Assembly: GCF_000332215.1 (NCBI RefSeq) | Contig: NZ_ALWB01000028.1 | Span: 1-32,424, forward strand | DNA length: 32,424 bases | DNA from: Pseudanabaena biceps PCC 7429 | GTDB lineage: Bacteria > Cyanobacteriota > Cyanobacteriia > Pseudanabaenales > Pseudanabaenaceae | Reading direction: 5' to 3' | Shown: positions 5,963-22,709 of the stretch, in pieces | Layout of the letters: each line of letters starts with the position of its first letter | Position numbering within the stretch: the stretch's first letter is position 1 | Translations under genes and position numbers: made by a program | The notes under the pieces: generated by a model | Told to the model about the DNA's origin: nothing | The model's database searches: none | Seen by the model: only the letters and a program-made list of their open reading frames with translations

Positions 5963-6399
5963 ACTTTAATATTCTCCCATTTTTTACTTAGATATTCAGC
6001 GACAAGGCGGCGATGACAATTATGTGGTTTTGCCTCACTACAGAGCAAACATCCATGATTGAGTAATTCGGGTGTAACTTTTTTCTCAATCTGACGATCT
6101 GATATAAGTTTTAAAAATTTTTGCTCATATACCCCCCAATCACCTTTGTTTTTTTTGTACTCGTCCAAAATATCTTTAGTTGGAGCTAAATCAAGAATAT
6201 GTACATAATCAATCGCCCCAACTTGTTTAAGGAAATACTTTAAATCATTTTTCTTAGTAAAGCCTGCTAACTGAGAGACATTGTTTAGCCTTGTATCTAT
6301 AACTGTTTTCACACCAGACTTTATCAAAGTATCAAAAAATTGCTCAGCACTTTTCTGAGTAAAGCCCATTGTAAATAATTTAACTGACTGACTAAGCAT
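5950..6399 (-). CDS. DUF488 family protein (shorter paralogue)
   Basis: 149 residues. The N-terminus LFTMGFTQKSAEQFFDTLIK followed by VIDTR matches the DUF488 opening (TIGHS...F...L...DVR in the classic form). The C-terminal signature is C120-S-E-x5-C128-H-R, the conserved C-x-E...CHR motif of the family. It overlaps the upstream DUF488 gene by 8 bp and the downstream dual-OB/WD40 gene by 13 bp, so all three form one transcript. The catalytic role of DUF488 is not settled; the invariant cysteines and CHR motif suggest an enzyme active site or metal site. It differs strongly from its upstream partner (MGFT instead of VGHSN), so the pair may be a specialised heteromer. Confidence 0.82.
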   Translation of the reverse strand: MLSQSVKLFTMGFTQKSAEQFFDTLIKSGVKTVIDTRLNNVSQLAGFTKKNDLKYFLKQVGAIDYVHILDLAPTKDILDEYKKNKGDWGVYEQKFLKLISDRQIEKKVTPELLNHGCLLCSEAKPHNCHRRLVAEYLSKKWENIKVCHL

Positions 6400-7048
6400 A
6401 AACTTCTCCTTTTGTTTCTACATAAGCGATTTCATTACCCTGCTTTTTATAAGCTTCCATGAGACAATCCTCACGGTCTAAATCATCATTTTCTTGCACA
6501 GGAGACAAAGCATCAAACAGTGAAAGTTGACTAATTTCTATTTGTTTTGCAAATTGTTTGAATCCATGCTTAGCCAACATCCTATCTTCCAAATCTCCGT
6601 GAGATTCTAGATCGCCATTACTTTTAATATGCTGAATATCTAGATCATATTCCTTGAGATGTGGACAAACTAAAATTGCTCGATGACAAGTTAAAGGATC
6701 TTTTTCGGCACACATCAACGCGATTCTATGCCGACTTTTTACACCTTTTAAGATTCGTCTTATTCCTTCTGTAAATAAGTCAGTCGCTGCAATTCTCTCA
6801 TATAGAGCCTTACCATCGACATAGCAACTTTGGTCTTCTGGTCTTGCTCCTAACTCTTGTCCTAGAAATACATAACGAATTTTGTCGGCTTCTAAATAAT
6901 CCTTTAACTGTGCTTGGCAAAAATGTGGTAAATAACGACTATAGGGACGCGATCGCACATCAGCTAAAGCCGTAATCTCATGCTTTTGTAAAAGCTCAAT
7001 AAAAGTCTTGATGCTGTGATTTGAATGACCAACAGTAAAAAGTTGCAT
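6392..7048 (-). CDS. DUF488 family protein (canonical paralogue)
   Basis: 218 residues. It shows the full DUF488 signature: FTVGHSNHS (4-12), LADVRSRPYSRYLPHF (28-43), FLGQELGARPED (61-72) and C113-A-E-x5-C121-H-R. The last ~55 residues (acidic, low similarity) extend past the core. ATG at 7046-7048 is the natural start, since the motif begins three residues in. It is the first gene of the DUF488-DUF488-dual-OB/WD40 operon; the 28-bp gap to the DUF29 gene upstream allows either a shared transcript or a promoter around 7050-7080. No function should be assumed beyond a conserved predicted active site. Confidence 0.87.
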   Translation of the reverse strand: MQLFTVGHSNHSIKTFIELLQKHEITALADVRSRPYSRYLPHFCQAQLKDYLEADKIRYVFLGQELGARPEDQSCYVDGKALYERIAATDLFTEGIRRILKGVKSRHRIALMCAEKDPLTCHRAILVCPHLKEYDLDIQHIKSNGDLESHGDLEDRMLAKHGFKQFAKQIEISQLSLFDALSPVQENDDLDREDCLMEAYKKQGNEIAYVETKGEVYA

Positions 7049-7076
7049 TGATGATTAACCTCAATAATTTTGATAA

Positions 7077-7568
7077 TTAACATAGTAATAAATCTTCTGG
7101 AAATTGAGGATCGAGGATTTGGGCGATCGCATAGGGACAATCGGGTGGTAAATCGGGATAATCGAAGGGTGTTTCTCGCACAACCAATGACAAAGACAAT
7201 CTATACGCTTCGATTACCGCTTCATTGAGATAGGACTTCAAACTCGGATTATCTTTTAGATGTAACGTGATGCGATCGCGTTGTTCGATAATGTTTGACC
7301 GCCAGCTTTTACCGCGCAATTCGGTTTGAAACTCCCACTTCAGCAAATGTCCAATCAAAACACCCAAACGATTGCGAAGTTCTTGTTTTTGCTGCTTACC
7401 CAACGACTCAATTTCCTCCACCAAATTCACGATGTCTAGAGAATGCCATTGACCGAGCCTTAATAGTTCTGACTGCTCCTGAGTCCAAGCATAAAAATCA
7501 ACTTCATATAAATCAGTAGCTAAATCAGGACTTGTTTCTATTGGTAGTTCCAACTTTGACTCAATCAT
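7077..7568 (-). CDS. DUF29 family protein
   Basis: 163 residues from ATG at 7566-7568. The family hallmarks are clear: YEVDFYAWTQEQSELLRLGQ, LDIVNLVEEIESLGKQQKQE, LRNRLGVLIGHLLKWEFQ, then RGKSWRSNIIEQR and a C-terminal DCPYAIAQILD...FPE. DUF29 is a small helical family abundant in cyanobacteria with no known function. A longer reading from TTG at 7577 is possible, but ATG-ATT is favoured because the upstream DNA is shared with higB up to the same ATGATTG start context. A second DUF29 gene lies at 21818. Confidence 0.87.
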   Translation of the reverse strand: MIESKLELPIETSPDLATDLYEVDFYAWTQEQSELLRLGQWHSLDIVNLVEEIESLGKQQKQELRNRLGVLIGHLLKWEFQTELRGKSWRSNIIEQRDRITLHLKDNPSLKSYLNEAVIEAYRLSLSLVVRETPFDYPDLPPDCPYAIAQILDPQFPEDLLLC

Positions 7569-7597
7569 TATGTTCAAGCCTGCAATGCATTACACAC

Positions 7598-7658
7598 AAC
7601 TATAACAAACCAGACCTACCATGCAGTAGGTTTAAAATCGTCATCATTGGCGATCGCC
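7598..7658 (-). promoter_or_regulatory. Duplicated upstream block, copy 1 (before DUF29 gene)
   Basis: AACTATAACAAACC (7598-7611) and a 27-bp block (7632-7658, beginning TTAAAATCGTCATCATTGG) are identical to blocks upstream of higB at 8939-8952 and 8976-9002. Between them both copies carry a short inverted repeat (here CCTAC...GTAGG). On the minus strand the first block reads GGTTTGTTATAGTT, giving a plausible TATAGT -10 box about 35 bp before the DUF29 ATG. The matching also touches the start codon context. Confidence 0.55.
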
Positions 7659-7664
7659 CAAAAT

Positions 7665-7985
7665 TTACACTTGACTGATAACTGGCACTCTCAACTTAAC
7701 CAAAGACTTTTGCAACACACTTGGCTTAACACTCAACCAAACCTGATTGCGATTATCCTCAGTATAGCCAACCACCACCGCCCCCACAGGTGAACCAATC
7801 TCAGGATACATTTCTGGACTCATCGCCCCACTATCCAAAAAATCTGGAATCTGGATAATTCCCTTTACATTCTCATCCCCAATATCAACAAACACTCCAA
7901 AAGGCGCATGAAATTCCACTTTCCCGTAAATTAACTTCCCAAGCTGATACTTAGTTTTGACTTGACTCCAAAGTTGACTATTCAT
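7665..7985 (-). CDS. Single S1-domain RNA-binding protein
   Basis: 106 residues. The segment GKLIYGKVEFHAPFGVFVDI, then KGIIQIPDFLD, then GSPVGAVVVGYTEDNRNQVW and LSVKP is a complete S1/OB fold: G..v.G.V.....fGvfVd......G.i......, ..G..v...V........v.LS.. . Nothing else is fused to it. It lies last in the row higB-higA-109-residue gene-S1, with only 3 bp between the previous stop (7989) and its ATG (7985), so it is probably translated from the same transcript. S1 domains bind single-stranded RNA; the partner here is unknown. Confidence 0.78.
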   Translation of the reverse strand: MNSQLWSQVKTKYQLGKLIYGKVEFHAPFGVFVDIGDENVKGIIQIPDFLDSGAMSPEMYPEIGSPVGAVVVGYTEDNRNQVWLSVKPSVLQKSLVKLRVPVISQV

Positions 7986-7988
7986 TGG

Positions 7989-8318
7989 CTACTTTCGCTT
8001 TAACACTCTAGGGAACTGGTTTAAAGTTGGAAATAAATCATGAGGAATCGGTAACTCGATATACGAACCACCCTGATAAGTCCTCTCAAGCGGTTTAAAA
8101 AGGCGATCATAAGTTTCTTGATCTATCGTAACCTCTAAAATACCCTGTTTGTAACTCTGGTTATACTGTTCAGCCAAACTTCTAGAGTTAGCGCCAGCAA
8201 AATAACACTTACCGTCTTCATAGGGTGGATTATACGGAAAATTCTCCACTTGAAAACCATTTTGCAACAATTTCTCGCCTTTATTCGGCTGAGGCGCTTT
8301 ATAAATAGTGACTGACAC
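7989..8318 (-). CDS. Unknown 109-residue protein downstream of higA
   Basis: I do not recognise a named family. The protein has a YFAGANSRSLAEQYN motif (about 39-53), then ILEVTIDQETYDRL, then YQGGSYIELPIPHDLFP and a basic end. The pattern 'yFa....AeqY...ileV.id......Y.Gg..iElpIP.dl' reminds me of toxin-like domains with an ADP-ribosyltransferase-type layout, but this is weak. Start is GTG at 8316-8318; there is no in-frame ATG upstream. It begins 6 bp beyond the higA stop and ends 3 bp before the S1 gene start, so it is most likely a third member of the higBA transcript. Confidence 0.65.
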   Translation of the reverse strand: MSVTIYKAPQPNKGEKLLQNGFQVENFPYNPPYEDGKCYFAGANSRSLAEQYNQSYKQGILEVTIDQETYDRLFKPLERTYQGGSYIELPIPHDLFPTLNQFPRVLKRK

Positions 8319-8324
8319 AATAAT

Positions 8325-8627
8325 CTAATGTAATGCTGCAATCGGGACTATTTGACGCAATATATCACCTAAATTTCTTTTGGCTTCCATCAACTCATAG
8401 GCATAATGCAACCGCAAAAAATAACCATCCGACAACCCAAAATAGCGACATAACCGCAAATCAACATCCGCAGTCATCGGAGCTTTACCTTTAATAATTT
8501 GTTGAATACTCAAATAAGGCAACCGCAAACTCTCAGCCAAACTATTTGCACTAATATCTAATTCTTCTAAAAACTCATATTGCAAGATTTCGCCAACATG
8601 AGGATTACGCAGTAAAGTATTTTCCAT
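8325..8627 (-). CDS. higA: HigA-type antitoxin (XRE/Cro HTH)
   Basis: 100 residues. It has the HigA opening NPHVGEILQYEFLEELDISA followed by a helix-turn-helix: NSLAESLRLPYLSIQQIIKG, KAPMTADVDLRLCRYFG. The last ~25 residues (MEAKRNLGDILRQIVPIAAL) are the usual tail. It would neutralise the RelE-fold toxin encoded just upstream (toxin-first order, typical of higBA) and repress the operon. A good ribosome site, AGGAG, lies about 8 bp before the ATG (8635-8639 on the plus strand). A toxin stop to antitoxin start gap of 21 bp supports one transcript. Confidence 0.88.
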   Translation of the reverse strand: MENTLLRNPHVGEILQYEFLEELDISANSLAESLRLPYLSIQQIIKGKAPMTADVDLRLCRYFGLSDGYFLRLHYAYELMEAKRNLGDILRQIVPIAALH

Positions 8628-8648
8628 TGCCTTTGCTCCTAATGATAA

Positions 8649-8921
8649 TCAAACAATCTCAACATCATAAGCATTTCCATTTTGCCAAACAAAACACAGT
8701 CGCCATTGCTTAGTAATGCGAATACTGTTTTGTCCGAGGCGATCGCCAACCATCGCTTCTAGATGATTGGCAGGTGGTACGCGCAGATCTTCCAGATTAG
8801 CGGACACATCAAGCTGACGTAATTTGCGTAAAGCCCTTTCTTGTATATCTGATGGTAGCCTACGCGATCGCACACCTTGCCAAATTTTCTCGGTTTCTTT
8901 ACAAGCAAACGAAACAATCAT
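8649..8921 (-). CDS. higB: HigB/RelE-fold toxin
   Basis: 90 residues, the usual HigB size. MIVSFACKETEKIWQGVRSR, then ALRKLRQLDVSANLEDLRVP, then the hallmark LEAMVGDRLGQNSIRITKQW followed by RLCFVWQNGNAYDVEIV. Members cleave mRNA on the ribosome; the R...I.I..QWRLCF.W segment holds the conserved basic and aromatic residues. ATG at 8919-8921. The upstream DNA (8939-9002) is a duplicate of that before the DUF29 gene at 7568, so promoter control may be shared. Sequence looks intact, so the pair is probably functional. Confidence 0.88.
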   Translation of the reverse strand: MIVSFACKETEKIWQGVRSRRLPSDIQERALRKLRQLDVSANLEDLRVPPANHLEAMVGDRLGQNSIRITKQWRLCFVWQNGNAYDVEIV

Positions 8922-8938
8922 TGAAGCCTAGACACCTG

Positions 8939-9002
8939 AACTATAACAAACCGCTAAACTTACCCTGTAACAGGCTTAAAATCGTCATCATTGGCGATCG
9001 CC
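8939..9002 (-). promoter_or_regulatory. Duplicated upstream block, copy 2 (before higB)
   Basis: Same two blocks as at 7598-7658: AACTATAACAAACC at 8939-8952 and the 27-bp block at 8976-9002, which contains a HIP1-like GGCGATCGCC end. The spacer contains a different short inverted repeat (CCTG...CAGG). On the minus strand TTATAGTT offers a -10 box about 20-25 bp before the higB ATG. The block begins only 6 bp beyond the vapC stop. Confidence 0.55.
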
Positions 9003-9007
9003 GTGTT

Positions 9008-9421
9008 CTAAGGCAATATCTCAAAATAATCACAGTGCCTAGGTCGCATAATCGAAAAATCACGACGATCCAAAGTTAAAACACGAGTAATACTTAATCT
9101 TTCAGCGATCGCCACAATTACCGCATCAACAAAATCAAGTTGACTATCAGCATACTGCTCTAAAATTTGATTAACTCGTTCCAAATCTGTTGCTGTCATC
9201 GATTCTATTTGAACCCCACTAACAACCAAATTAGCAATAAATTTCCGCATCGCCTGATGTCCTAACCTTGAAGCAATCAAATAACAAACTTCAGGCAAAA
9301 CGACACTAGGAAGTAGTAATCGCTCATTGATACTTTGCACTACAGACAGAACGCGATCGTGATTACGATCTGTTAAATTCGTTAGAGCAAACAGAAAGCT
9401 AGTATCAAGTACAACAGTCAT
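9008..9421 (-). CDS. vapC: PIN-domain (VapC-type) toxin
   Basis: 137 residues. PIN acidic residues are in place: D6 in MTVVLDTSFLFAL, E44 in VVLPEVCYL, D96/D99 in SQLDFVDAVIVAIAE, and D118 in VLTLDRRDF. This predicts a Mg-dependent ribonuclease. The ATG overlaps the antitoxin TGA (9418-9421), the usual antitoxin-then-toxin coupling. No disruption is seen. Confidence 0.9.
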   Translation of the reverse strand: MTVVLDTSFLFALTNLTDRNHDRVLSVVQSINERLLLPSVVLPEVCYLIASRLGHQAMRKFIANLVVSGVQIESMTATDLERVNQILEQYADSQLDFVDAVIVAIAERLSITRVLTLDRRDFSIMRPRHCDYFEILP

Positions 9422-9690
9422 CCTTGTTCATCTGCATGAAGACTCCAACCACGAATCGGATTTACTTCACTTGCTAAAATCTCTTCATCCCTCTCCGAAA
9501 CATCTTTTTCATTGGAAGCACCCAAGCCAGCAATTGACAGTAAAAAACTGTTATGAGGTTGTGCTGTTTTTGTTTCAACAGCCTTGTAGCGAAGATAGCC
9601 AATAAAACTAACAAGCTCAGAGAAAGCATCCTCTGGCAAGTTATCAATTACTTCAATAATCTGCTGCCGCGTTGGAGTTAGGCTATTCAT
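9418..9690 (-). CDS. Antitoxin partner of the PIN toxin (DUF2281-like)
   Basis: 90 residues from ATG at 9688-9690 (a TTG two codons earlier is less likely). The N-terminus TRQQIIEVIDNLPEDAFSEL, then VSFIGYLRYKA is the typical 'i...l..lp.....l..f..yL..k' helix pair of DUF2281-type antitoxins that pair with PIN toxins. The C-terminal half is acidic and probably disordered, ending near the toxin start, and would wrap the PIN active site. Overlap of 4 bp with vapC supports co-translation. Confidence 0.78.
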   Translation of the reverse strand: MNSLTPTRQQIIEVIDNLPEDAFSELVSFIGYLRYKAVETKTAQPHNSFLLSIAGLGASNEKDVSERDEEILASEVNPIRGWSLHADEQG

Positions 9691-9714
9691 AAGCAAACAT
9701 GAAAAAGATGCTCA

Positions 9715-14564: not shown

Positions 14565-14912
14565 GGACAAAAAGGATATTTAGAGGGCTAAGTCAGCTCG
14601 GACGTAATTCGGGTTTTACGACGGCTATCTTGGATTGTACTAATAACTTTATGTCTTAGGGAAGATGTCTTAATGAAATGATCATATGCAATGCAAAAAA
14701 TTCTGGTATTTTGCAGTATTTTGTTACTTTAGATACTAAATTACCAAGGTATGTCGAGAAAGGTTAAACCAAAATCTTAGGACTGAGGGAGGTAATATTT
14801 GCTTGAATCGCAAGCGAGCGATCGCCATTAACTTGTTTGGATTAATTTAATCGTTTTGAGCGATCGCACGGATTTCCGACTTTTTTAAAATCGGCGATCG
14901 CCACTCCTACAA
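14565..14912. other. Intergenic region upstream of gltS
   Basis: 348 bp between the gltS start and the last WXG100-like gene, both on the minus strand. It must hold the gltS promoter and the end of the WXG100/FtsK transcript. I see three HIP1 or HIP1-like sites (about 14819, 14861, 14894), AT-rich sequence around 14690-14750, and no convincing terminator, ORF or RNA gene. Confidence 0.5.
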
Positions 14913-15692
14913 TTATTTCCCTCCCGTTATTTCAGGATAATCTAGTAATTTACGATTCCTCTCATCTTCTTCATCTTTCTTTTTCTGAGAGATTTCCATC
15001 GAAGCATCAAGTTTTTCAAGCGAAGCATCAAGCCATTCAAGGTCAGAACTAAGCCCGATCTCTTTTTTTAGATCATCAGAAATTTTGGTAATTATTTTTG
15101 GGGCAGAATCTTCGGGTAAGTTAGGATTTTTGGCGATCATTTCATCGTAAACGGCGATCGCGGGTGCAATAATCTCATCATAATTTTTCATCAAGCCACC
15201 AAGGAATATTGTGGTGAAGATCATGCCGCTTGCTGTACCTTTGCGTAAGTTAGCGATCGCCTGATAAAAGCCGTTATTAATGCTATTAAGAAGATTCTCT
15301 AATGATGAATCGTTGGTAGCTCTAGGATTATTTGGTGCAGACTGACTGCTTGCCGATGTAGAATTTGGACTTCCCATTTGAATTGGCAATTTAGCAGTGA
15401 GGATTTCAGAAATTGCCCCTAAGCCATAAACCTGTTCGGTAATTTGAATTTTCCTGTCCAAATATTCGCTTGTTTTTTCATAAATTTTGATTGTAGTTTT
15501 AGTTTTATCTAAAAATTCTTCCCAAAAATCATGTACGAAGTCTGAATACTGATCGTCACGCCATGTTGATTCAAGGTTATGCCATTGGTTTATTAATCTG
15601 CTAAATTCTTGATCTAATACATCTCGCAAATTTTGCAATTGTCGAGATAGTTCTTTTGCCTCTTCAATATCAAATTTGGTTTGTGTTGCCAT
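14913..15692 (-). CDS. WXG100-like protein with long C-terminal extension
   Basis: 259 residues. The first ~95 residues form a WXG100-type helical hairpin: FDIEEAKELSRQLQNLRDVL, helix 1, then the turn STWRDDQYSDF with W44-R-D46 in place of W-x-G, then helix 2. The rest adds a Ser/Asn/Pro-rich linker (about 115-135), a helical segment with a moderately hydrophobic stretch (GMIFTTIFLGGLM, about 160-172), and a charged Lys/Glu tail. Its first 55 residues align without gaps with the 97-residue neighbour. The layout (WXG100 head plus C-terminal domain) recalls LXG- or long-WXG-type substrates of type VII systems, but no toxin domain is recognised. Starts 3 bp after the stop of the upstream gene, so coupled. 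Confidence 0.78.
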   Translation of the reverse strand: MATQTKFDIEEAKELSRQLQNLRDVLDQEFSRLINQWHNLESTWRDDQYSDFVHDFWEEFLDKTKTTIKIYEKTSEYLDRKIQITEQVYGLGAISEILTAKLPIQMGSPNSTSASSQSAPNNPRATNDSSLENLLNSINNGFYQAIANLRKGTASGMIFTTIFLGGLMKNYDEIIAPAIAVYDEMIAKNPNLPEDSAPKIITKISDDLKKEIGLSSDLEWLDASLEKLDASMEISQKKKDEEDERNRKLLDYPEITGGK

Positions 15693-15695
15693 AGC

Positions 15696-15989
15696 CTAAA
15701 GTCCTTTTAAAGCGCCTAATTTAGCTCTGCGCTCTTCGGCAATGCGAACTTGTTCCCGCATGAAAGAGATAAATTCTTCTGATTCTTTTTGGCTGTCTTT
15801 ATGGGTTGTAGTTAGTTTTTCGTAGAGTGGCTCAAATGTCTGGTACTGGTCATCATGCCAGCACGATCGCAGGTTTGCCCATTGATTTTCCACCCTTGAC
15901 CAATCTTGTTTCATCGCTTCATGGAAATTTTCTAGTTGCTTGAGCAAGTCCTTTGCGTCATCAAGATCGAATGTAGTTTGTGCTGCCAT
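15696..15989 (-). CDS. WXG100-like small helical protein (W-x-D variant)
   Basis: 97 residues, right for WXG100 proteins. Helix 1 is FDLDDAKDLLKQLENFHEAM, then the turn RSCWHDDQYQTFEPLY with W44-H-D46, then helix 2 to residue ~92. The D-D-Q-Y-x-x-F pattern after the tryptophan is shared with the 259-residue neighbour. Family members form helical-hairpin dimers secreted by, or forming part of, ESX/Ess (type VII) systems. No YxxxD/E secretion tail is seen. ATG at 15987-15989 follows AGAGAAC. Middle of three tandem WXG100-like genes; possibly a heterodimer partner of one of them. Confidence 0.78.
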   Translation of the reverse strand: MAAQTTFDLDDAKDLLKQLENFHEAMKQDWSRVENQWANLRSCWHDDQYQTFEPLYEKLTTTHKDSQKESEEFISFMREQVRIAEERRAKLGALKGL

Positions 15990-16024
15990 GATGTTCTCTT
16001 TTAATTGTAATTATCTGTGGAGAG

Positions 16025-16043
16025 CAAGGGGCTTAAGCCCTTG
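16025..16043. repeat. CAAGGGGCTTAAGCCCTTG hairpin between WXG100 genes
   Basis: Nearly the same palindrome as the gltS terminator (9947-9966) but with one unpaired G and no T-run after it on the minus strand. It sits between the stop of the 90-residue WXG100 gene and the start of the next gene, so it could be a transcript-processing or attenuating hairpin. A third relative lies at 31588-31606. Confidence 0.6.
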
Positions 16044-16052
16044 TCTGTATTT

Positions 16053-16325
16053 TTAATTTCTTTCAAATTCTTCGACAATTTCTAAAAAACGCTCTAGCCA
16101 TTTTTTTGCATCTTCGCCAGCATCAAGAGCGGATTCAGTTGTTTTTGTGGTTTCTTCAAATTCTTTGGTAAAGCGTTCTTTTGATTCACCTTGCCAAGAC
16201 TCGTCACACTTTTTCCATTTGGCTTCTAGCTCCTTAAACTCATCGCCAACCTGTCTCTGGAAGTTTCCCAAGACATCGATAAACCGACTGAGTTCATCAA
16301 TATTGACATCGATATCTCTTGCCAT
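16053..16325 (-). CDS. WXG100 family protein (classic W-x-G)
   Basis: 90 residues. IDVNIDELSRFIDVLGNFQR, helix 1, then KKCDESWQGESKERFTKEF with W44-Q-G46 at the turn and the typical following E/S..F, then helix 2 with the end EDAKKWLERFLEIVEEFERN. This is the cleanest WXG100 signature in the window and anchors the assignment of its neighbours. Strong ribosome site AGGAGAA lies before the ATG at 16323-16325, suggesting high expression compared with the ATPase gene. It lies 136 bp downstream of the FtsK/SpoIIIE-like gene, with a repeat element in the gap. Confidence 0.85.
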   Translation of the reverse strand: MARDIDVNIDELSRFIDVLGNFQRQVGDEFKELEAKWKKCDESWQGESKERFTKEFEETTKTTESALDAGEDAKKWLERFLEIVEEFERN

Positions 16326-16367
16326 AAAGTTCTCCTGTTGTGTTTTCTAAGTAAGTAATTGGAATTT

Positions 16368-16456
16368 GTAGGATGGGTTAGCGATCGCGTAACCCATCAT
16401 TTGAAATTAATCATTTGGGATTAATTGATGCGTTACGTTGTACTAACGCATCCTAC
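16368..16456. repeat. Double-hairpin element between ATPase and WXG100 genes
   Basis: GTAGGATGGGTTAG (16368-16381) at one end and CTAACGCATCCTAC (16443-16456) at the other form an inverted pair. Each end is itself a hairpin: GATGGGTTA with TAACCCATC, and GATGCGTTA with TAACGCATC. The first loop contains a HIP1 octamer. It is a widespread type of bacterial intergenic repeat. It lies 5 bp beyond the ATPase stop codon, so it could reduce or process the transcript before the WXG100 genes. Confidence 0.72.
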
Positions 16457-16461
16457 GAAAA

Positions 16462-19400
16462 TTAAGCCTTCTTACTTAGATAATTTGCATAGATGGCAAA
16501 TTCCTGTTTAGTTGGCACGGCATAGGGCTTGAATTTCTCCAAATTGGCGGCTGTGGCTTCATCTTTGAAGTAGGCACGAAGTTTAGTTAGACTGGTGGCT
16601 AAGGTTTCATTGAATAAAGTACGGGAGTCATCGGCGGGCATGGTCAAGCCAATCCGTAGGTCAAAGTTGCTGAGGGAGATGCGCTCTTTTCCTGCAAATA
16701 GTTGGTTTAAGGTTTTGATGCCTTCTACCCAGAGAATTAGATGAATACCCAGTTCTGAACCCTGAGAGGCGATCGCCATTAATTTCTTAGCATCATCGGA
16801 CATATCGGGATTACCGCGATTGTCAACGGTGGGGCGCAAACTATTGAGGCGCTCTAATGTACCGATCGCTGCCACAAAAAAGATGGAAGCACCAAAATTA
16901 GTAGTGTCGGGATCGACTTCTCGCAGTTGCTTACGGCGCTCGAATTCGGCATGAATATTTTGCAGGGTAGTATTGGCTTTGCTGATGTGGCGATCGCTGT
17001 CGGCGAAGTCTTTGGCGATCGTGATCGGGAAATAGGATGAGAAGGCTTCACGGAAATTAAGGGTCATGCTTGACCAGTGACTACCACGATCGTCTTCATC
17101 GGATAGGTCGATGATGTGAAATTCGGCTTTTTGGGGTTGATGGCTGGAAACAAGGCTGGTCAAAACGCCGCCGAGGATACCAAAGATATTTTCTTCGATA
17201 TTGCCGACTAGGAGCATATTGCTACGGCTACGGCGGCGGAAGATGGCGCGGCTATGGTAGCCAATTTGCATTGCTTCGCCGACCCATGCAATGCTAGGAA
17301 AGTCACGTACGCGCCAGTTCGATTCATTGACGATATCCTTGATATCCGCAGGACTGAGCCAAGTATCAGCCGATGCTAATACCGTTAATAGTCCATTATT
17401 GCGGAGTCGGGTGGGATGTCTACCATCAAAGACCACTAGCTGATCGGTGGGTGGGCGTTGGTAGCCAGTGGCTTGGACAGTTTCTTGGATTTTGCGTAAT
17501 GCCTTTTTGCGCTCACCTGTGGAGGCATCGGCAACTTGACCGATTTCGTTACTGCCTTTACGTCCAAAGTCAGAGTTGTAAATAATCCGTCCGGGGCGAT
17601 CGAGTAAATCGACAGCATCGGTATTTCCTTCTGCTAGGGTCATGGCGGCGACGTTTTGATTCATCTGCATCGCCATCCGCAGATCGATGAGGTCATAGAC
17701 GCTGCGGGTAATGTTCTTGATATTGGGCGATTGGGAAGCTAACAATAAGTGAATCCCAAAAGCGCGACCTTTTTTAACAATGGTGTCAAAGATTTGGTTT
17801 AGCTCTGCGGAGATGCTGTCGTTGTCTTCAAATAAAACCTGAAATTCGTCAATGACGATGAGAATACGCGGCATTTTCTTGCCATTGGTTTTATTACGAT
17901 ATTCAGCAACCTTGGTAATGTCATTAGATATCGATTTCCATTCGTTAGCCCGAATCTGGAACTGCTCGTTGACTTTACGCAGGACGCTCAAACCAAACTC
18001 ACGATCGCTTTCAATAGATATCACTTTGGCATGAGGTAATGCTTTTGTCAGATCGAGATCATTAGAAGAGCCAGAATCTTCACCGCGATCGGGATCGACA
18101 TAGACTTGAAACTCAACGCCTTCTTTGAAGTCGAGTAGATACAGTTCCAATTCATCAGGAGCATAGCGCATGGCTAACCCATTGATAATGCTATGCAAAG
18201 TGTAGCTTTTACCTGCCCCTGGTTTACCAAATAGCAGCGATTGACTGACTTCTAAGCCCTTGGGATTTTGCCCCAACCAGAATTCTAGTTTTTCTCGCGC
18301 ACCCGCCACACCAATCGCTGTGCGAATTTCACCACGACTATCACTTGTCCACAATGTTTCTGGATATAGCTGTGAGAAGGCAACGGTGTCAACTTTGACT
18401 TCACCACAAGCTTTGCTAATCATGGCGGTGAGTTGGTTAAAGCGATCGCTTTCGGGTGGTTTGTCTAGAGTTGCATAGCAAACGATTTGTGTTTCAGGTG
18501 ACTCATAAACAAATAGGGGTTCACCATTGTAAGAGCGATCGGCAGGGCGTAAAACCTGACAATGGGCTTTGAACAGGTCGTAATTAAAGTTACGGGGTTT
18601 TTCTAGGGTTTCGTCAATGTGAATGATTGTGTAAACCCCTGCTCTAGAACCATTGACTAGTAGGCTATTAAGATATTCAAAGGATTTGTTATCAAATTTG
18701 CTAGGGAAATCAGCGATAAACAGATAGCGATAAGCCTCTTGAATGGCTTCGGCAGCGGCGTTGTAGGCTTCGATATTGTCGTAATCACGGCTGAGATAGT
18801 TTTGGATAACTTGCTCAGTATGTCCGATCAGTTTATGTAGTTGTTCTTGAATATCATCGCTGGTTGTGTAAGTGCGTTTACCGCGAATTTCTTCAGGTAG
18901 GCTCTTGAATGGGAAGGTGTTTCCCATACTGACGGGATCGATGAAGATGCCTTGTAGTTTTCGGGCGGGGAATGTTGCTATGGCGCGTAATGCGATCGAT
19001 TCGAGGGCGGCGGTGGCTGCTTGTCTGGTTTCAGGGCTGTTTGTGAAGATCGCAATATGTCCAGAATCCTGTCCTTGCTTGAAAGTTCGATATTGCAACA
19101 GTAACGGTAATTGATCAAGAGTAATGGCGATTGATTTATCTTCAAATAAATTCTCTACTAGATCTGTATTACTTAAATCAACAGAAAATTTACTTTTTTT
19201 ATCAACAATCTCACAAAGCTTACCCATCCGAACTAGGAATGGAGCAAGTCCTTCAGTTCTAGATGTATAAGCATTTTTCATATTGAGATTCCACCATCGC
19301 TCGTCATTCCATCCAACTGTAATTTGTCTAGATGAAGTTTCTAAAGGTTTTATCTCTCCATCAACTACTGTCACCAGACGATCTAAAAGCAAATGTGTTG

Positions 19401-19797
19401 AAGATAGTAATTGTGATGTCTCAACAATATTGTTAGTGAAATTATCTGTTAGAGTTTCATTAACTACTTTTTCAGTGATTTTAATAAATGCAAGCACACG
19501 AGATAATCTTTTAGCCAATGCTTCGCGAATATTTACCGCTTCTTGCCCCAATTGCCCCCTTTTATTGCTGATCTTTTGATTCCAATCCTCTTCACTGGTC
19601 TTTATTTGCTGTTCATGATCATCTGCACTAAATTGTAATTTTTCCTCCCAAGATTCTTCCGTAGCCTTTAGTTTTTTTTGAGATGTTCTCTCTAGATCAT
19701 TCAAGACTTCAATATAGCGAGATTTATCTCTTTGTAAAGATTCAAGAGCATCTTCTGCTTTACCACGTTGTTCTAAAACTTTAATAATGTTTGCCAT
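16462..19797 (-). CDS. FtsK/SpoIIIE (EccC/EssC-like) ATPase with three ATPase modules
   Basis: 1111 residues. Residues 1-100 are a charged coiled coil. Module 1 (about 180-420) has the fold pattern but no P-loop (HIAIFTNSPETRQAATAALE in place of Walker A; YRYLFIADFP as a Walker-B-like strand). Module 2 (about 480-770) is intact: Walker A GKPGAGKS (524-531), LDFKEGVEF typical of the FtsK family, Walker B ILIVIDEFQ (645-653), and the sensor strand IHLLLASQS (682-690). Module 3 (about 815-1090) is again degenerate (NMLLVGNIEENIFG instead of a P-loop; SIFFVAAIG; IHLILWVEG). Three FtsK-type modules with mixed activity is the plan of EccC/EssC, the motor of type VII secretion. Unlike those, it lacks N-terminal membrane segments and FHA domains. 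A membrane link may come from the two-TM protein encoded just upstream. Alternative: a DNA-pumping ATPase of a conflict system. Confidence 0.85.
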   Translation of the reverse strand: MANIIKVLEQRGKAEDALESLQRDKSRYIEVLNDLERTSQKKLKATEESWEEKLQFSADDHEQQIKTSEEDWNQKISNKRGQLGQEAVNIREALAKRLSRVLAFIKITEKVVNETLTDNFTNNIVETSQLLSSTHLLLDRLVTVVDGEIKPLETSSRQITVGWNDERWWNLNMKNAYTSRTEGLAPFLVRMGKLCEIVDKKSKFSVDLSNTDLVENLFEDKSIAITLDQLPLLLQYRTFKQGQDSGHIAIFTNSPETRQAATAALESIALRAIATFPARKLQGIFIDPVSMGNTFPFKSLPEEIRGKRTYTTSDDIQEQLHKLIGHTEQVIQNYLSRDYDNIEAYNAAAEAIQEAYRYLFIADFPSKFDNKSFEYLNSLLVNGSRAGVYTIIHIDETLEKPRNFNYDLFKAHCQVLRPADRSYNGEPLFVYESPETQIVCYATLDKPPESDRFNQLTAMISKACGEVKVDTVAFSQLYPETLWTSDSRGEIRTAIGVAGAREKLEFWLGQNPKGLEVSQSLLFGKPGAGKSYTLHSIINGLAMRYAPDELELYLLDFKEGVEFQVYVDPDRGEDSGSSNDLDLTKALPHAKVISIESDREFGLSVLRKVNEQFQIRANEWKSISNDITKVAEYRNKTNGKKMPRILIVIDEFQVLFEDNDSISAELNQIFDTIVKKGRAFGIHLLLASQSPNIKNITRSVYDLIDLRMAMQMNQNVAAMTLAEGNTDAVDLLDRPGRIIYNSDFGRKGSNEIGQVADASTGERKKALRKIQETVQATGYQRPPTDQLVVFDGRHPTRLRNNGLLTVLASADTWLSPADIKDIVNESNWRVRDFPSIAWVGEAMQIGYHSRAIFRRRSRSNMLLVGNIEENIFGILGGVLTSLVSSHQPQKAEFHIIDLSDEDDRGSHWSSMTLNFREAFSSYFPITIAKDFADSDRHISKANTTLQNIHAEFERRKQLREVDPDTTNFGASIFFVAAIGTLERLNSLRPTVDNRGNPDMSDDAKKLMAIASQGSELGIHLILWVEGIKTLNQLFAGKERISLSNFDLRIGLTMPADDSRTLFNETLATSLTKLRAYFKDEATAANLEKFKPYAVPTKQEFAIYANYLSKKA

Positions 19798-19845
19798 GAT
19801 TTCGACACCTATATTAACTCAAGCAAAGTTCTACATTGTAGATTG

Positions 19846-20535
19846 TTAAGACTGAAGTCGCCAAAAGAAAACAACAGCTAGAGCTATAATTGCCCCCCAA
19901 GCACCACCAATACTTCCACCTAGAATAAAAGATGCAGCAAGAAATAGAATCTCAATTAAAAGAGACTTGTTCAATTCTTCTAACTCTACTTTCTTTCGCT
20001 CAATATCGTTTGAGCAAAACTCTAAACGTTGTCTTGCTGAATTTAGTTCAGAGGATTGAGATTTTTGCAAACTTGATAAATCAGAGTCTCTAGAATCTCG
20101 CAAAGCTTTCAAGTTGGAATCTCTAGCATTTCTCAAATTGGCTAAATCTGAATTCTTAGCTGCTTGTAAACTCTCTGGATCGTTTTTTGCTCTTCTTTCA
20201 TGTGCTTGCCAATCAGCAAGACCATTACTAAGACTCATTACCAAAATATCAAATTCATCCTTGTTCAGATTTAAAGCAACTTGGGTGAATTCGAGCGTTT
20301 CAAAGTGTTCAACTTCAGGTAAATCTGAAAGACTATATCTAGAAACCTTTAAGGCTGTATCTCTTTTATCAATGGGTAACTTGTTTTTACAATAAGCGAG
20401 AAATTCTTTTCCTGCCTCGAAATTGTGCCAAGCATTCACAATACTTTCTAAAGCAGTCTGTTCTGTTACTTGACAGTAAACATCAAGATCTTTTAAAGCG
20501 TCAGGATTTTCAATTATTTGGTTATCTGTTGTCAT
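19846..20535 (-). CDS. Coiled-coil protein with hendecad repeats and two C-terminal TM segments
   Basis: 229 residues; no named family recognised. Residues 1-110 are a soluble domain (helical, acidic). Residues 128-171 are four consecutive 11-residue repeats: NSDLANLRNAR, DSNLKALRDSR, DSDLSSLQKSQ, SSELNSARQRL, which predict a straight or right-handed coiled coil. Residues 190-226 form two membrane segments (SLLIEILFLAASFILGGSIG, then AWGAIIALAVVFFW) joined by a Gly-rich turn. So the coiled coil should project from the membrane. First gene of the cluster, 48 bp before the FtsK-like ATPase, whose own N-terminus is also a coiled coil; the natural inference is that this protein anchors the ATPase to a membrane. 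Confidence 0.72.
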   Translation of the reverse strand: MTTDNQIIENPDALKDLDVYCQVTEQTALESIVNAWHNFEAGKEFLAYCKNKLPIDKRDTALKVSRYSLSDLPEVEHFETLEFTQVALNLNKDEFDILVMSLSNGLADWQAHERRAKNDPESLQAAKNSDLANLRNARDSNLKALRDSRDSDLSSLQKSQSSELNSARQRLEFCSNDIERKKVELEELNKSLLIEILFLAASFILGGSIGGAWGAIIALAVVFFWRLQS

Positions 20536-21067
20536 ACATTAATGAGCCTTAATTGATAGAAAGATTGGATCGCTACATATCAAGTAGCCAGACATGAGAA
20601 ATTGAAAAGAAATTGAGATCTCTGACTTTTTCTCTGTAAGTCAAAGTTAACTTTTGTCAGCCACAAAAAAAGTGAAAATCTGACCCACGATCGCTTGCTT
20701 TTAATTTAAAAATAGTGAAGAAAATTGCTACAAACTCAGGAAAGTGGAAATCACCGCCTATTTAGTTGATTAACTGCCTAAAACTTGGTAAATCTCATCC
20801 CTGCTTGAAAAACTCTCATCAAATCTTACAGAAAAAAAGAATGAAAAGCAACCACTTCAATTAATAAAATTCATGTCAAGTTTTTAGATATCTGATTTTT
20901 AAAAAAGAGAACTATACTTTCGATCTTGTCAAAAAACTGGAGATCATTGCTGCGGGAACGCTCTGTCCCCATATTTGGCTAAAATTAAAATACTAGATAT
21001 CTCACTAATTGCTACAACTACACCTAAAGTTAATAATGTTAAAATGCTAGAATCATCGGAATAAGTC
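20536..21067. other. Divergent intergenic region between the ATPase cluster and xisHI
   Basis: 532 bp, AT-rich, between divergently transcribed units. It should hold both promoters. TTAAAAT-type -10 candidates lie near 21039 for xisH. I see no ORF, RNA gene, HIP1 array or inverted repeat of note. Confidence 0.5.
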
Positions 21068-21484
21068 ATGTCTGCAAGAGATATTTTTTATGATGCTGTC
21101 AAAATAGCCTTGCAAAAAGATGGTTGGCAAATAACCCATGATCCACTTTCATTAGAATTTGGTCTGGGGCTGCTATATGTTGACTTAGGAGCAGAGCGTA
21201 TCATTGCCGCAGAACGAAGTAACGAAAAAATAGCAGTAGAAATAAAAAGCTTTCTCGGTGGTTCAGCCGTCTCTGAATTTCATACAGCACTTGGGCAATA
21301 TCTCAACTACCGCTTACTAATGCAAGAGCAGTACCCAGATTACAAATTATATTTAGCCATACCATCAAGCACCTATGATTCATTCTTTCAATTGCCTTTT
21401 GTCCAAGCCACAATTCAGCAATATCAACTCAAGTTAGCAATTTATAAACCAGAAAAGCAGGAGATCGTGAAATGGCAAGACTAA
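21068..21484 (+). CDS. xisH: XisH family protein (fdxN-element excision controlling factor)
   Basis: 138 residues, usual length. MSARDIFYDAVKIALQKDGW, then WQITHDPLSLEFG, then YVDLGAERIIAAERSNEKIA followed by VEIKSFLG, and the conserved EFHTALGQYLNYR. The D39...E58-I-K60 spacing looks like a PD-(D/E)xK nuclease-type core, which has been proposed for the family; this is a reading of the motif only. In Anabaena xisH and xisI are needed with the recombinase XisF for excision of the fdxN element. No recombinase lies here, so this is one of the many stand-alone xisHI pairs of cyanobacteria. Overlaps xisI by 13 bp. Confidence 0.92.
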   Translation: MSARDIFYDAVKIALQKDGWQITHDPLSLEFGLGLLYVDLGAERIIAAERSNEKIAVEIKSFLGGSAVSEFHTALGQYLNYRLLMQEQYPDYKLYLAIPSSTYDSFFQLPFVQATIQQYQLKLAIYKPEKQEIVKWQD

Positions 21485-21807
21485 ATGAATATCGCCAAAA
21501 AATCCAAGATTTACTCACGCAACTAGCAGAATATGGCTCAGCAAATGATGGAGTTGAGTCACAATTGATCTTTGATACTGAGCGAGATCACTATCAACTA
21601 GCTCATGTAGGCTGGCGAAACGATCGCCGAATTTATGGCTGTGTTGTGCATCTTGATATCAGAGATGACAAGATCTGGGTGCAACACAATGGAACAGAGT
21701 TTGATATAGCTGTCAAGTTATCAGAGATGGGTATCCCAAAAGAAAATATAGTAAATGGATTTCATTCCAGCTATATGCGACAGTTTACAGAATTTGCAGT
21801 TAGCTAA
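21472..21807 (+). CDS. xisI: XisI family protein
   Basis: 111 residues. LNEYRQKIQDLLTQLAEYGS, then VESQLIFDTERDHYQLAHVG, WRNDRRIYGCVVHLDIRDDK, IWVQHNGTE and the final MGIPKENIVNGFHSSYMRQF are the standard XisI signature from end to end. Translation is coupled to xisH through the overlap. It ends 10 bp before the stop of the convergent DUF29 gene, with no terminator visible between them. Biochemical role unknown; the fixed pairing suggests a complex or a toxin-antitoxin-like unit (inference). Confidence 0.93.
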   Translation: MARLNEYRQKIQDLLTQLAEYGSANDGVESQLIFDTERDHYQLAHVGWRNDRRIYGCVVHLDIRDDKIWVQHNGTEFDIAVKLSEMGIPKENIVNGFHSSYMRQFTEFAVS

Positions 21808-21817
21808 GAATTAGCGT

Positions 21818-22267
21818 TTAAACATTTTGAATGCCAATGGGAAAGTTCTCATCAAAAATTTGTTCGATAGAATAAGGGCATTCTTTCGGTAAATCCTTGG
21901 GTTTAAGGCGAGTTTCTTTTTCGGCAAGAACTAAAGCTAACTCGAAACCATCAGCGATCGCTTCTGATAGATAAGATTTTAGGCTAGGATTTTTTCGGAT
22001 TAGCTTTTTTATTTGAATTCTTTGCTCTTTGATGGTTAATCGCCAACTTTTACCGCGCAACCTCGGCTGCAAATCCCACTTAATCAAATGTCCCAGCAAA
22101 ATTGCTAAACGATTTTCCAACTCAGATCTTTTTTGGCTCCCCAAAGATTCAATTTCCTCCGCTAAATTCTCTATATCTAAACCATCCCATTTACCTAAGC
22201 GTAAACGCTCTACCTGCTCAACCGTCCAACGATAAAAGTCCGAATCGTATAGTAGTGTTGACATCAT
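21818..22267 (-). CDS. DUF29 family protein
   Basis: 149 residues from ATG at 22265-22267, preceded by AAGGTG; the next codon is also ATG, and a GTG lies three codons earlier. LLYDSDFYRWTVEQVERLRL, LDIENLAEEIESLGSQKRSE, LENRLAILLGHLIKWDLQ, RGKSWRLTIKEQR and DLPKECPYSIEQIFDENFP line up with the DUF29 protein at 7077-7568, so they are paralogues, though clearly diverged. Function unknown. Convergent with xisI. The 442 bp upstream hold a MITE-like repeat (22370-22469). Confidence 0.88.
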   Translation of the reverse strand: MMSTLLYDSDFYRWTVEQVERLRLGKWDGLDIENLAEEIESLGSQKRSELENRLAILLGHLIKWDLQPRLRGKSWRLTIKEQRIQIKKLIRKNPSLKSYLSEAIADGFELALVLAEKETRLKPKDLPKECPYSIEQIFDENFPIGIQNV

Positions 22268-22369
22268 CAAGATCACCTTTGTTAATCAAACGCTAAATCA
22301 ATATTATAAATCTGCTCACCTATATTTTTATAAAGTAATCCCTTCGCTAATCCTTTCACTGTTTACCTT

Positions 22370-22469
22370 ATAGCAATTCACGAAAGTGTGACAACACTTG
22401 TGAATAAAAAACAAACCTAGTAAGGGTTTGAAAAACTAAAAATGGCGTAGCCATTTTTAGTTTTGGTAT
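22370..22469 (-). repeat. MITE-like ~100-bp element, reverse orientation
   Basis: Same family as 29164, 29268 and 32262, here inverted. It runs from ATAGCAATTCACG (degenerate end) to TTTTGGTAT. It contains the conserved core hairpin ACTAAAA-ATGGCGTAGCCAT-TTTTAGT and a second hairpin AATTCACGAAAGTG...CACTTGTGAAT. It lies between the DUF29 gene and the cyclase; the remaining ~240 bp before the cyclase start hold HIP1 and no other feature I can support. Confidence 0.8.
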
Positions 22470-22709
22470 TACTTTGCTATAGCTACAGATCCATATAACA
22501 ATACTGAAAATAGGCGATCGCTATAAATAGCTTGTAGTCGCGATTTGATTTCTTGCAAAAGAAACTGCAAACCCAAAAGATGTATGGCACTGCAAAGCGG
22601 TGCTACATATTTTTTAGGTTTTATCTTAATGAGCAAATAGTCGCAGACTTGTTCTTTTCAGTAAGGATCGCCTTATCATTGGCAGTATAGACTTTTTTGC
22701 AGCTCTTAT

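What the first reader, a model, noticed from the sequence alone, without database searches (positions are those of the whole stretch)
14913..20535. Compact type VII-like (WXG100 + FtsK/EccC-type ATPase) gene cluster in a cyanobacterium
Seen: five same-strand genes, in order a coiled-coil protein with two TM segments, a three-module FtsK/SpoIIIE ATPase and three WXG100-like proteins, the last two coupled with 3-bp spacing. Known: in ESX/Ess systems EccC/EssC ATPases recognise and export WXG100 dimers. Inference: this is a minimal, diverged type VII-like export or translocation machine in a diderm phototroph. It lacks EccB, EccD, EsaA, mycosin and FHA domains, and the ATPase lacks its own TM helices, so the two-TM coiled-coil protein may supply the membrane anchor.
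Basis: partly seen in the sequence, partly recalled or inferred. Interest (0 to 1): 0.9.

Follow-up and report, generated by a model that had tools for sequence, protein, structure and literature searches.

The report
Mobile mini type VII export cassette
A cyanobacterium carries a five-gene mobile cassette that looks like a stripped-down protein-export motor with its small helical cargo proteins, a kind predicted before but with no function shown that I could find, and relatives suggest that its membrane anchor is a separate gene that elsewhere is fused to the motor.

Summary
The five genes are real and conserved. The 1111-residue protein is an EccC/EssC-type ATPase: EccC/EssC chains fill the first eight Foldseek ranks (best 6.6e-30; FtsK 2.7e-13), with one active motor. 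W1 passes the Pfam WXG100 cut-off; W2 and W3 do not, but their joint profile matches WXG100-like HP0062 (9e-14). A cyanobacterial WXG profile gave 93 hits in 60 of 78 other ATPase loci, 92 on the ATPase strand. The kind is in print: PMC3482391 (2012) lists mobile T7SS versions with one active middle module, cyanobacteria included; PMC11090510 (2024) describes it beside CoCoNuTs. Not found in print by my searches: (1) in the window's clade 11 of 14 TM-less ATPases have a TM-segment gene directly upstream, while 53 of 90 homologues carry TM segments themselves and one cyanobacterial ATPase is a natural fusion; (2) relatives carry ADP-ribosyltransferase, GNAT or nuclease domains in the cargo slot; (3) six congener loci show an empty site for a roughly 7.9-kb insertion. 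Export is the likeliest function but unshown; an intracellular conflict system is the main rival.

The parts
19846..20535 (-). Gene 1, 229 aa: coiled coil (by eye) with C-terminal hydrophobic stretch; proposed membrane anchor
   Evidence: ORF; hydrophobic segment; weakly similar to upstream genes of other cyanobacterial loci (L041 E 3e-5 in a 12-sequence comparison), and one such gene (L212) matches the N-terminus of the fused ATPase L210 at 3.7e-28
19858..19962 (-). Hydrophobic C-terminal stretch (residues 192-226), probable TM hairpin
   Evidence: Kyte-Doolittle peak 192-210; second half by eye
16462..19797 (-). Gene 2, 1111 aa: EccC/EssC-like FtsK/SpoIIIE ATPase without TM helices
19384..19797 (-). 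ATPase N-terminal coiled coil / stalk (residues 1-138)
   Evidence: model helices 2-39 and 57-138; pLDDT mostly 35-81 there
18391..19374 (-). Module 1 (residues 142-469): no Walker A; with the stalk it aligns with the N-terminal part of EccC5 and YukB that I take for stalk and DUF
   Evidence: 7b9f_C Z 15.2, 9qks_G Z 14.8; Walker A in 0 of 43
18205..18228 (-). Walker A GKPGAGKS of the single active motor (residues 524-531)
   Evidence: GKS in 43 of 43
17845..17865 (-). Walker B of the active motor (ends D650 E651)
   Evidence: D650 and E651 invariant in 43 sequences
16053..16325 (-). Gene 3 (W1), 90 aa: WXG100 protein with WQG turn
   Evidence: PF06013 31.4 bits over cut-off 27.3
15696..15989 (-). 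Gene 4 (W2), 97 aa: WXG100-like hairpin, WHD turn
   Evidence: below Pfam cut-off; family profile hits HP0062 3fx7 at 8.8e-14
14913..15692 (-). Gene 5 (W3), 259 aa: WXG-like N-terminal hairpin plus C-terminal extension; effector-slot protein
   Evidence: N-terminal part is in the same profile as W2; model helices 9-43 and 47-90
14916..15401 (-). C-terminal part of gene 5 (residue 98 on), no known domain found
   Evidence: 67-77% identity between congeners against 88-93% for the N-terminal part; no Pfam family over cut-off; model pLDDT mostly low
14913..20960 (-). Unit shared by three congeners in different surroundings
   Evidence: identity falls to about 33-50% on both sides
14742..22629 (.). 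Approximate insertion missing at the same site in six of seven congener loci (cassette + XisH + XisI + DUF29)
   Evidence: flanks printed side by side

Best explanation
A mobile, minimal type VII-like protein export/translocation cassette. Shown: a T7SS-class ATPase with one active motor, tied in gene clusters to WXG100-family hairpins and to an effector-slot protein, and carried on an insertion. Inferred: the ATPase forms a hexamer (as FtsK-family motors do) held at the inner membrane by the 229-aa coiled-coil/TM-hairpin protein, which pairs with the ATPase's N-terminal coiled coil and so restores, in two chains, the TM-stalk-DUF layout of EccC/EssC. W1, W2 and the W3 N-terminus pair as four-helix bundles that act as targeting handles. 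ATP hydrolysis threads W3, and in relatives toxin-bearing proteins in the same slot, across the inner membrane. How cargo would cross the outer membrane is unknown.
For: ATPase full-length fold: EccC and EssC chains rank 1-8 (best 6.6e-30), FtsK from rank 9 (2.7e-13); DUF-like module 1. WXG genes beside the ATPase in 60 of 78 other loci, 92 of 93 hits on its strand, 93 of 93 within 3 kb. TM segments: of 90 loci 53 ATPases carry their own ahead of module 1, 12 lack them but have an adjacent TM gene, 20 have neither, 5 are cut by contig ends; separate TM gene in 12 of 32 without against 4 of 53 with own TM. In the window's 19-member clade 11 of 14 TM-less ATPases have the TM gene directly upstream. 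Natural fusion L210. Anchor gene and the ATPase's N-terminal 227 residues diverge together: 38% and 38% against L039, 77% and 60% against L038, while the rest of the ATPase is 95-96% identical. Domains over Pfam cut-offs in the cargo slot or a protein in its place: ART in L041, GNAT in L116, WHH nuclease followed by a SUKH gene in L036, GNAT behind the WXG-like part in L209 and L210.
Against: No secretion data for any member met here. No YukC or YukD in the genome. 20 of 90 loci show neither TM segments in the ATPase nor an adjacent TM gene by this crude test, among them the CoCoNuT-linked L034 and Helicobacter L036. No C-terminal YxxxD/E signal in W1-W3. W2 and W3 miss the WXG100 cut-offs and score slightly higher on unrelated NCBIfam models. 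W3 of the window has no recognisable effector domain, and no immunity gene is evident beside it. The TM counts are not phylogenetically independent. The best PADLOC match of the motor is a defence protein, mad8.
Confidence: 0.57

Rival explanations
1. Intracellular conflict (defence) module: the ATPase remodels or releases WXG-tethered effectors inside the cell when infection or stress is sensed; nothing is exported.
For: One relative (L034) sits in a CoCoNuT/TerY-P-like operon with VWA, CARF, PP2C and kinase genes; another lies near TerD genes (L035), another near Hsp70 and GrpE (L037). In PADLOC the motor (residues 520-731) matches mad8 at 3.7e-16 and SspH at 6.8e-11, with HerA models weaker; this covers the motor only and is weaker than EccCa in NCBIfam (1.8e-24). 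I noticed an immunity-type gene beside an effector in one relative only (L036); this was not searched systematically. The CoCoNuT paper notes that the missing TM helices suggest a different mechanism.
Against: Among 128 neighbours (200-700 aa, + strand, near the ATPase) of L040-L117 no defence family stands out in the 25 commonest Pfam families shown of 145: protein kinases match 4 proteins, TPR at most 5. 53 of 90 ATPases carry TM segments. One relative has an adjacent SUKH gene, as exported toxins do.
Confidence: 0.28
2. DNA translocase or mobilisation factor of the mobile element.
For: The motor domain alone aligns best with FtsK (2iut_A Z 29.1, 277 residues, 2.7 A); the cassette is mobile.
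Against: Whole-length match is EccC/EssC and module 1 aligns with T7SS chains; WXG partners are conserved across phyla; no relaxase or integrase was met among the eight proteins scanned from 14913-22276.
Confidence: 0.07
3. Decaying or inert selfish cassette with no present function.
For: Patchy: 9 of 386 sampled genomes of the phylum, own included; L209, L212 and L213 look frame-broken in the anchor region, by eye.
Against: W1 and W2 are 96-99% identical in protein and the ATPase beyond residue 227 95-96% over DNA that is about 84-97% identical in 200-base windows, which points to purifying selection; no dN/dS was computed.
Confidence: 0.08

Closest known systems
Mobile versions of T7SS with YueA-like ATPase and solo WXG proteins (Zhang et al. 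2012, PMC3482391, Table 1 footnote 6; passages seen)
   [quoted passage not shown] WXG proteins; mobile; cyanobacteria, planctomycetes, verrucomicrobia, bacteroidetes and some proteobacteria listed
   Different: The passages I saw mention neither a separate anchor subunit nor a DUF identity of module 1
EssC-like ATPase/WXG100 extension of type III-A CoCoNuTs (PMC11090510, passages of section 10)
   Same: N-terminal coiled coil, no TM helices, only the middle module active, two WXG100 proteins of which one lacks the WxG motif, coiled-coil effector
   Different: Window cassette stands alone, has an adjacent TM-segment gene, and no CoCoNuT gene was met among the eight proteins scanned from 14913-22276
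Helicobacter pylori HP0062/HP0066 and the 'WXG100 secretion system' cluster (PMC4978471 and PMC3397514, passages)
   Same: WXG-like hairpin (HP0062, WRD in the bend), FtsK/SpoIIIE gene, HNH nuclease in the cluster; HP0062 is the best solved match of the W2/W3 profile
   Different: HP0066 itself was not compared here; gene order not compared
ESX/Ess T7SS (EccC/EssC)
   Same: ATPase class, DUF-like module, WXG100 partner
   Different: TM segments on another chain, fewer modules, one Walker A, no YukC/YukD found

Membership tests
T7SS (ESX/Ess) | EccC/EssC-class FtsK/SpoIIIE ATPase | tested here: met
   Best PDB sequence match is T. curvata EccC (4nh0) at 2.9e-17; EccC/EssC chains rank 1-8 in Foldseek. 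NCBIfam equivalog cut-offs are not reached: EccCa 86.5 of 509.15 bits, EssC 66.2 of 778.4
T7SS (ESX/Ess) | Stalk plus DUF module ahead of the motor | tested here: met
   Model residues from 53-101 to about 466 align with EccC5 and YukB chains: 7b9f_C Z 15.2 (3.9 A), 7b9s_2 15.2 (7.8 A), 7npt_C1 15.1 (4.1 A), 9qks_G 14.8 (4.8 A), 257-289 residues. That this chain part is stalk and DUF is recalled, apart from the title of 9qks; the tool warns that parts outside 329-788 are barely tested and that helices raise Z
T7SS (ESX/Ess) | TM helices in the ATPase itself | tested here: not met
   None at the threshold; a gene with a TM segment lies directly upstream
T7SS (ESX/Ess) | Three ATPase modules after the DUF (recalled) | tested here: not met
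   Two modules after the DUF-like one, the last without Walker A
T7SS (ESX/Ess) | WXG100 partner | tested here: met
   W1 over the Pfam cut-off; W1 is below the stricter NCBIfam WXG100 cut-off (31.1 of 44.85); W2 and W3 are below both
T7SS (ESX/Ess) | Other core parts: EssB/YukC, YukD | tested here: not met
   No match in the genome, control B. subtilis rings
T7SS (ESX/Ess) | EccB | tested here: inconclusive
   No match, but the control rang nowhere
T7SS (ESX/Ess) | EccD, EsaA, mycosin | not tested
   not searched
T7SS (ESX/Ess) | C-terminal YxxxD/E signal on the substrate | tested here: not met
   Only one internal match, W2 residue 49; motif recalled
T7SS (ESX/Ess) | ATPase-dependent secretion | not testable with these tools
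   needs an experiment
Mobile WXG/YueA-like T7SS version (PMC3482391) | Three HerA/FtsK domains, only the middle one active | tested here: met
   Walker A in the middle module in 43 of 43, in the first 0 of 43 and in the third 0 of 43
Mobile WXG/YueA-like T7SS version (PMC3482391) | Solo WXG proteins and mobility | tested here: met
   W1; three congeners with the unit in different surroundings, empty site
CoCoNuT III-A extension | VWA, McrB/McrC-type genes around the ATPase | tested here: not met
   Eight proteins of 14913-22276 scanned, none matches; further window genes not scanned
DNA translocase (FtsK/HerA) | Best full-length match is a DNA translocase | tested here: not met
   EccC/EssC rank first; the motor alone ranks FtsK first

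The most novel reading that the evidence does not exclude
Diderm bacteria of many phyla share a functional, mobile type VII-like exporter reduced to an ATPase, a separable two-helix membrane anchor and WXG handles; it swaps effector domains (ADP-ribosyltransferase, acetyltransferase, nucleases) and needs none of the other known T7SS membrane proteins.
Probability: 0.33. Interest if true: 0.78.

Novelty: new variant of a known kind. Interest (0 to 1): 0.55.

Why it matters
Type VII secretion is usually described for Actinomycetota and Bacillota (so in PMC11217815, passages of the abstract). A compact cassette in cyanobacteria with a separable anchor would make the minimal requirements of WXG export, and whether diderms export by this route at all, testable with five genes. 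It also offers an answer to a difficulty raised in print for the CoCoNuT-linked relatives: how a TM-less EssC-like ATPase could serve secretion.

Tried and rejected
A DNA-translocase reading was considered because of weak HerA matches and the FtsK-like motor, and set aside on the full-length match. PADLOC's best match, mad8 at 3.7e-16, covers the motor only and is reported under the defence rival.

Fold of W3: model mean pLDDT 55.6 with only 7 sequences; Foldseek gave nothing at E <= 0.001. EsxA/EsxB chains appear at E 2.7-9.8 with target TM-scores 0.72-0.82: only suggestive. The C-terminal half has no interpretable model.

Viral collections: the single-protein scan found no relative. The alignment scan found 83 relatives, 80 kept, of which one (L120, query residues 264-1096) is near full length and the rest match the motor region. 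In phages 95 records match, none with 80% coverage; one unannotated record covers 51%, the other listed rows about 18-24%. The cassette is not phage-typical.

A recurrent partner protein: 128 neighbours scanned, no dominant family among the 25 shown.

Flaws of my own: one search aligned a wrong stretch and was not used. The WXG seed set held one wrong-frame ORF (L113), as did alignment A5; the count was redone without it and the alignment, and I cite those. In one search the W1/W2 identity rows picked wrong ORFs; one search replaces them. In one search the tree display failed; one search replaced it (midpoint root). One search looked at the wrong place for the third module's Walker A and matched 3 chance strings in the first; redid both. 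Five of the 80 genome loci (L062, L082, L088, L097, L119) were dropped for want of a complete ATPase ORF hit, and L118, with a partial one, was left out of the TM count. ATPase starts are the longest possible ones, so N-terminal lengths are upper limits. TM calls are a Kyte-Doolittle window (19 residues, 1.6), and a few are doubtful (L035, L042, L112). The EccC module mapping rests on one predicted model.

Not done: complex prediction of the ATPase with W1-W3 or the anchor (no tool); EccD, EsaA and mycosin searches; a metagenome scan; a test of homology to LXG domains; a dN/dS estimate. The 2012 Ter paper cited by the CoCoNuT authors was not held, so what it says is known only through PMC11090510 and PMC4978471.

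At the filing check I changed the confidence of the best explanation from 0.58 to 0.57 and of the defence rival from 0.27 to 0.28, because the mad8 match had been left out.
Full report
What is there. Five minus-strand ORFs lie at 20535-14913 as described: 229, 1111, 90, 97 and 259 aa. Two congeners (G003 = L038, G021 = L039) hold the same five genes in the same order. Between the three genomes the unit aligns from 14913 to about 20960, and identity drops to about 33-50% on both sides; the surroundings differ. Of 97 genomes searched (own included) 22 match at E <= 0.001; besides the window only G003 and G021 have long matches. The other hits span at most about 240 query residues, at 25-32% identity, except a 36-residue stretch at 83% in G013 that may be a remnant. 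The gltS region is found in 25 of 26 genomes of the genus. In six of the seven congener loci fetched there (L219-L224 of L218-L224) gltS lies next to the window's 22710-25952 gene, so about 7.9 kb, roughly 14742-22629, is an insertion that holds the cassette plus XisH, XisI and a DUF29 gene. Two of the six (G003, G021) carry the cassette elsewhere. The seventh, L218, shows no match beyond gltS in the stretch held. So the unit is mobile or at least horizontally moved.

The ATPase. Pfam gives FtsK_SpoIIIE at 70 bits; NCBIfam gives EccCa 86.5, EssC 66.2 and EccCb 57.9 bits, far below their equivalog cut-offs, and DNA translocase FtsK 23.1; PADLOC gives mad8 57.5 and SspH 38.4 bits over the motor. 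In the PDB the best sequence match is Thermomonospora EccC at 2.9e-17, then EccC5 at 1.7e-11. An AlphaFold model from 43 sequences has mean pLDDT 87.1. Foldseek ranks EccC and EssC chains 1-8 (best 6.6e-30) ahead of FtsK (2.7e-13). VIA-align shows the finer picture: residues 469-1095 align with two EssC modules (4lya, Z 26.5, 497 residues, 6.7 A), residues from about 100 to 466 with the N-terminal part of EccC5 and YukB (Z 14.8-15.2 in four chains), which I take for stalk and DUF (recalled, and the title of 9qks), while the motor alone aligns best with FtsK (Z 29.1, 277 residues, 2.7 A). In 43 homologues the middle module has GKS in all 43, and neither the first nor the third has a Walker A in any. 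I therefore read stalk - DUF-like - active motor - dead module.

The small proteins. W1 passes the Pfam WXG100 cut-off; W2 and W3 do not, and on NCBIfam W2 and W3 score slightly higher on unrelated models. A profile of W2/W3-type proteins (10 sequences) matches HP0062 of Helicobacter (3fx7, 2gts) at about 9e-14, and a W1-type profile (7 sequences) matches HP0062 at 1.4e-5, then streptococcal WXG proteins and EsxB at 3e-4 and weaker. HP0062 is described as a dimer with ESAT-6-like features, WRD in the bend and an FtsK/SpoIIIE gene in its cluster (PMC3397514, passages); W3 has WRD and W2 WHD in the corresponding place.

Co-occurrence. A profile from 11 seeds of four cyanobacterial loci found, in one pass, 93 hits in 60 of 78 other loci; 92 lie on the ATPase strand, against 3212 of 6705 ORFs in general, and all 93 within 3 kb, against 3847 of 6705. 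Over 91 loci the WXG genes lie only downstream in 22 (two or more in 20), only upstream in 51, and none was found in 18, some of them cut by contig ends. In a FastTree tree of 90 ATPases the window falls in a clade of 19 (support 0.979): 12 cyanobacterial members (0.999) with a Chloroflexota sister, and a group of six with Deinococcus, two other bacteria and three more cyanobacteria. In the phylum the system is rare: at E <= 1e-60, 9 of 386 sampled genomes, own included, and 7 of 142 genera.

The anchor. Many planctomycete homologues have TM segments in the ATPase ahead of module 1. By a simple hydrophobicity test 53 of 90 ATPases carry them, 12 lack them but have an adjacent TM gene (11 upstream), 20 show neither and 5 are cut. 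A separate TM gene occurs in 12 of 32 without and 4 of 53 with own TM (Fisher p 0.001, not corrected for kinship). Inside the window's clade of 19, five have own TM segments, 11 have the gene directly upstream and three (L113, L212, L213) show neither. Cyanobacterial L210 has a 1206-aa ATPase whose N-terminus carries two TM segments and matches the separate upstream gene of L212 at 3.7e-28. The window's 229-aa protein is linked to that family weakly (L041 gene, E 3e-5 in a 12-sequence set, with coiled-coil bias likely). Among the three congeners the anchor gene and the ATPase's first 227 residues diverge together (77% and 60%; 38% and 38%), while the rest of the ATPase stays at 95-96%. This fits two parts that must match each other, but so few comparisons cannot prove it.

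The cargo slot. In relatives the third protein, or a protein in its place, carries recognisable domains: ADP-ribosyltransferase in L041 (PF01129 35.9 bits, cut-off 22.3), GNAT in L116, WHH nuclease in Helicobacter plasmid L036 followed by a SUKH protein, GNAT behind a WXG-like part in L209 and L210. Nuclease-like or ParB-like ends in L035, L051, L073, L107, L112 and L117 are read by eye; Pfam gave nothing over cut-off for them, nor for L034 and L037. In 36 loci a protein lies between two upstream WXG genes; 32 are 156-246 aa, look helical by eye and leave little room for an added domain, four are 297-388 aa. This recalls LXG toxins with small helical partners (recalled; of PMC9600955 I saw only the listing), but I did not test homology to LXG. 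The window's W3 has a C-terminal part without known domain; it varies more than the N-terminal part.

What is known. [quoted passage not shown] PMC11090510 (passages) describes the same kind of ATPase with two WXG100 proteins in CoCoNuT operons and notes the missing TM helices. PMC4978471 (passages) names a WXG100 secretion system cluster in H. pylori. So the kind is known; in the passages I saw no function is shown. I did not find the separate anchor, its fusion, or the DUF assignment in those passages or in the listings of searches; most subscription papers are not held.

Mechanism. Shown: ATPase class, single active motor, WXG partners, conserved neighbourhood, mobility, effector domains in relatives. 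Inferred: hexamer, anchoring by the 229-aa protein, WXG dimers as handles, export across the inner membrane. Not explained: passage of the outer membrane, missing YukC/YukD equivalents, and what W3 does. The main rival is an intracellular conflict system, favoured by the CoCoNuT and TerD neighbourhoods of single relatives and by the mad8 match, but not by a survey of neighbours.

Noticed in passing
window 21068-22276: XisH and XisI genes plus a DUF29 gene ride in the same insertion; in L038 a close DUF29 relative again sits near the cassette, by eye with a RelE/Phd-like pair instead of XisHI.
   Followed up: partly
L209, L210, L212 (between ATPase and W1); L213 (nucleotidyltransferase-like only): A nucleotidyltransferase/HEPN-like gene pair is inserted between the ATPase and WXG genes in this cyanobacterial subgroup; by eye, no family scan. 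L209, L212 and L213 look frame-broken in the anchor region.
   Followed up: no
G013:C149:44095-44202 (L005): A 36-residue stretch 83% identical to ATPase residues 924-959 in a congener without the cassette, perhaps a remnant.
   Followed up: no
L034 5552-18987: Caballeronia plasmid: the cassette lies between two VWA genes with DUF1887 CARF, PP2C and kinase genes, as in the CoCoNuT III-A description.
   Followed up: partly
L120: A contig filed as viral (IMG/VR) holds a near full-length ATPase with WXG-like genes and a 276-aa protein downstream.
   Followed up: no
L214 downstream of the cassette (L215 alike by eye): A Prok-JAB protease-like gene and a WD40 repeat protein of about 1250 aa follow the WXG genes.
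   Followed up: partly
L040, L041, L043, L211 downstream: Small membrane proteins follow the cassette; the L043 one has ankyrin repeats and an ARC6-like IMS domain, and the others look alike in part, by eye.
   Followed up: partly
window about 4217-9696: A run of small minus-strand ORFs left of gltS, not examined.
   Followed up: no
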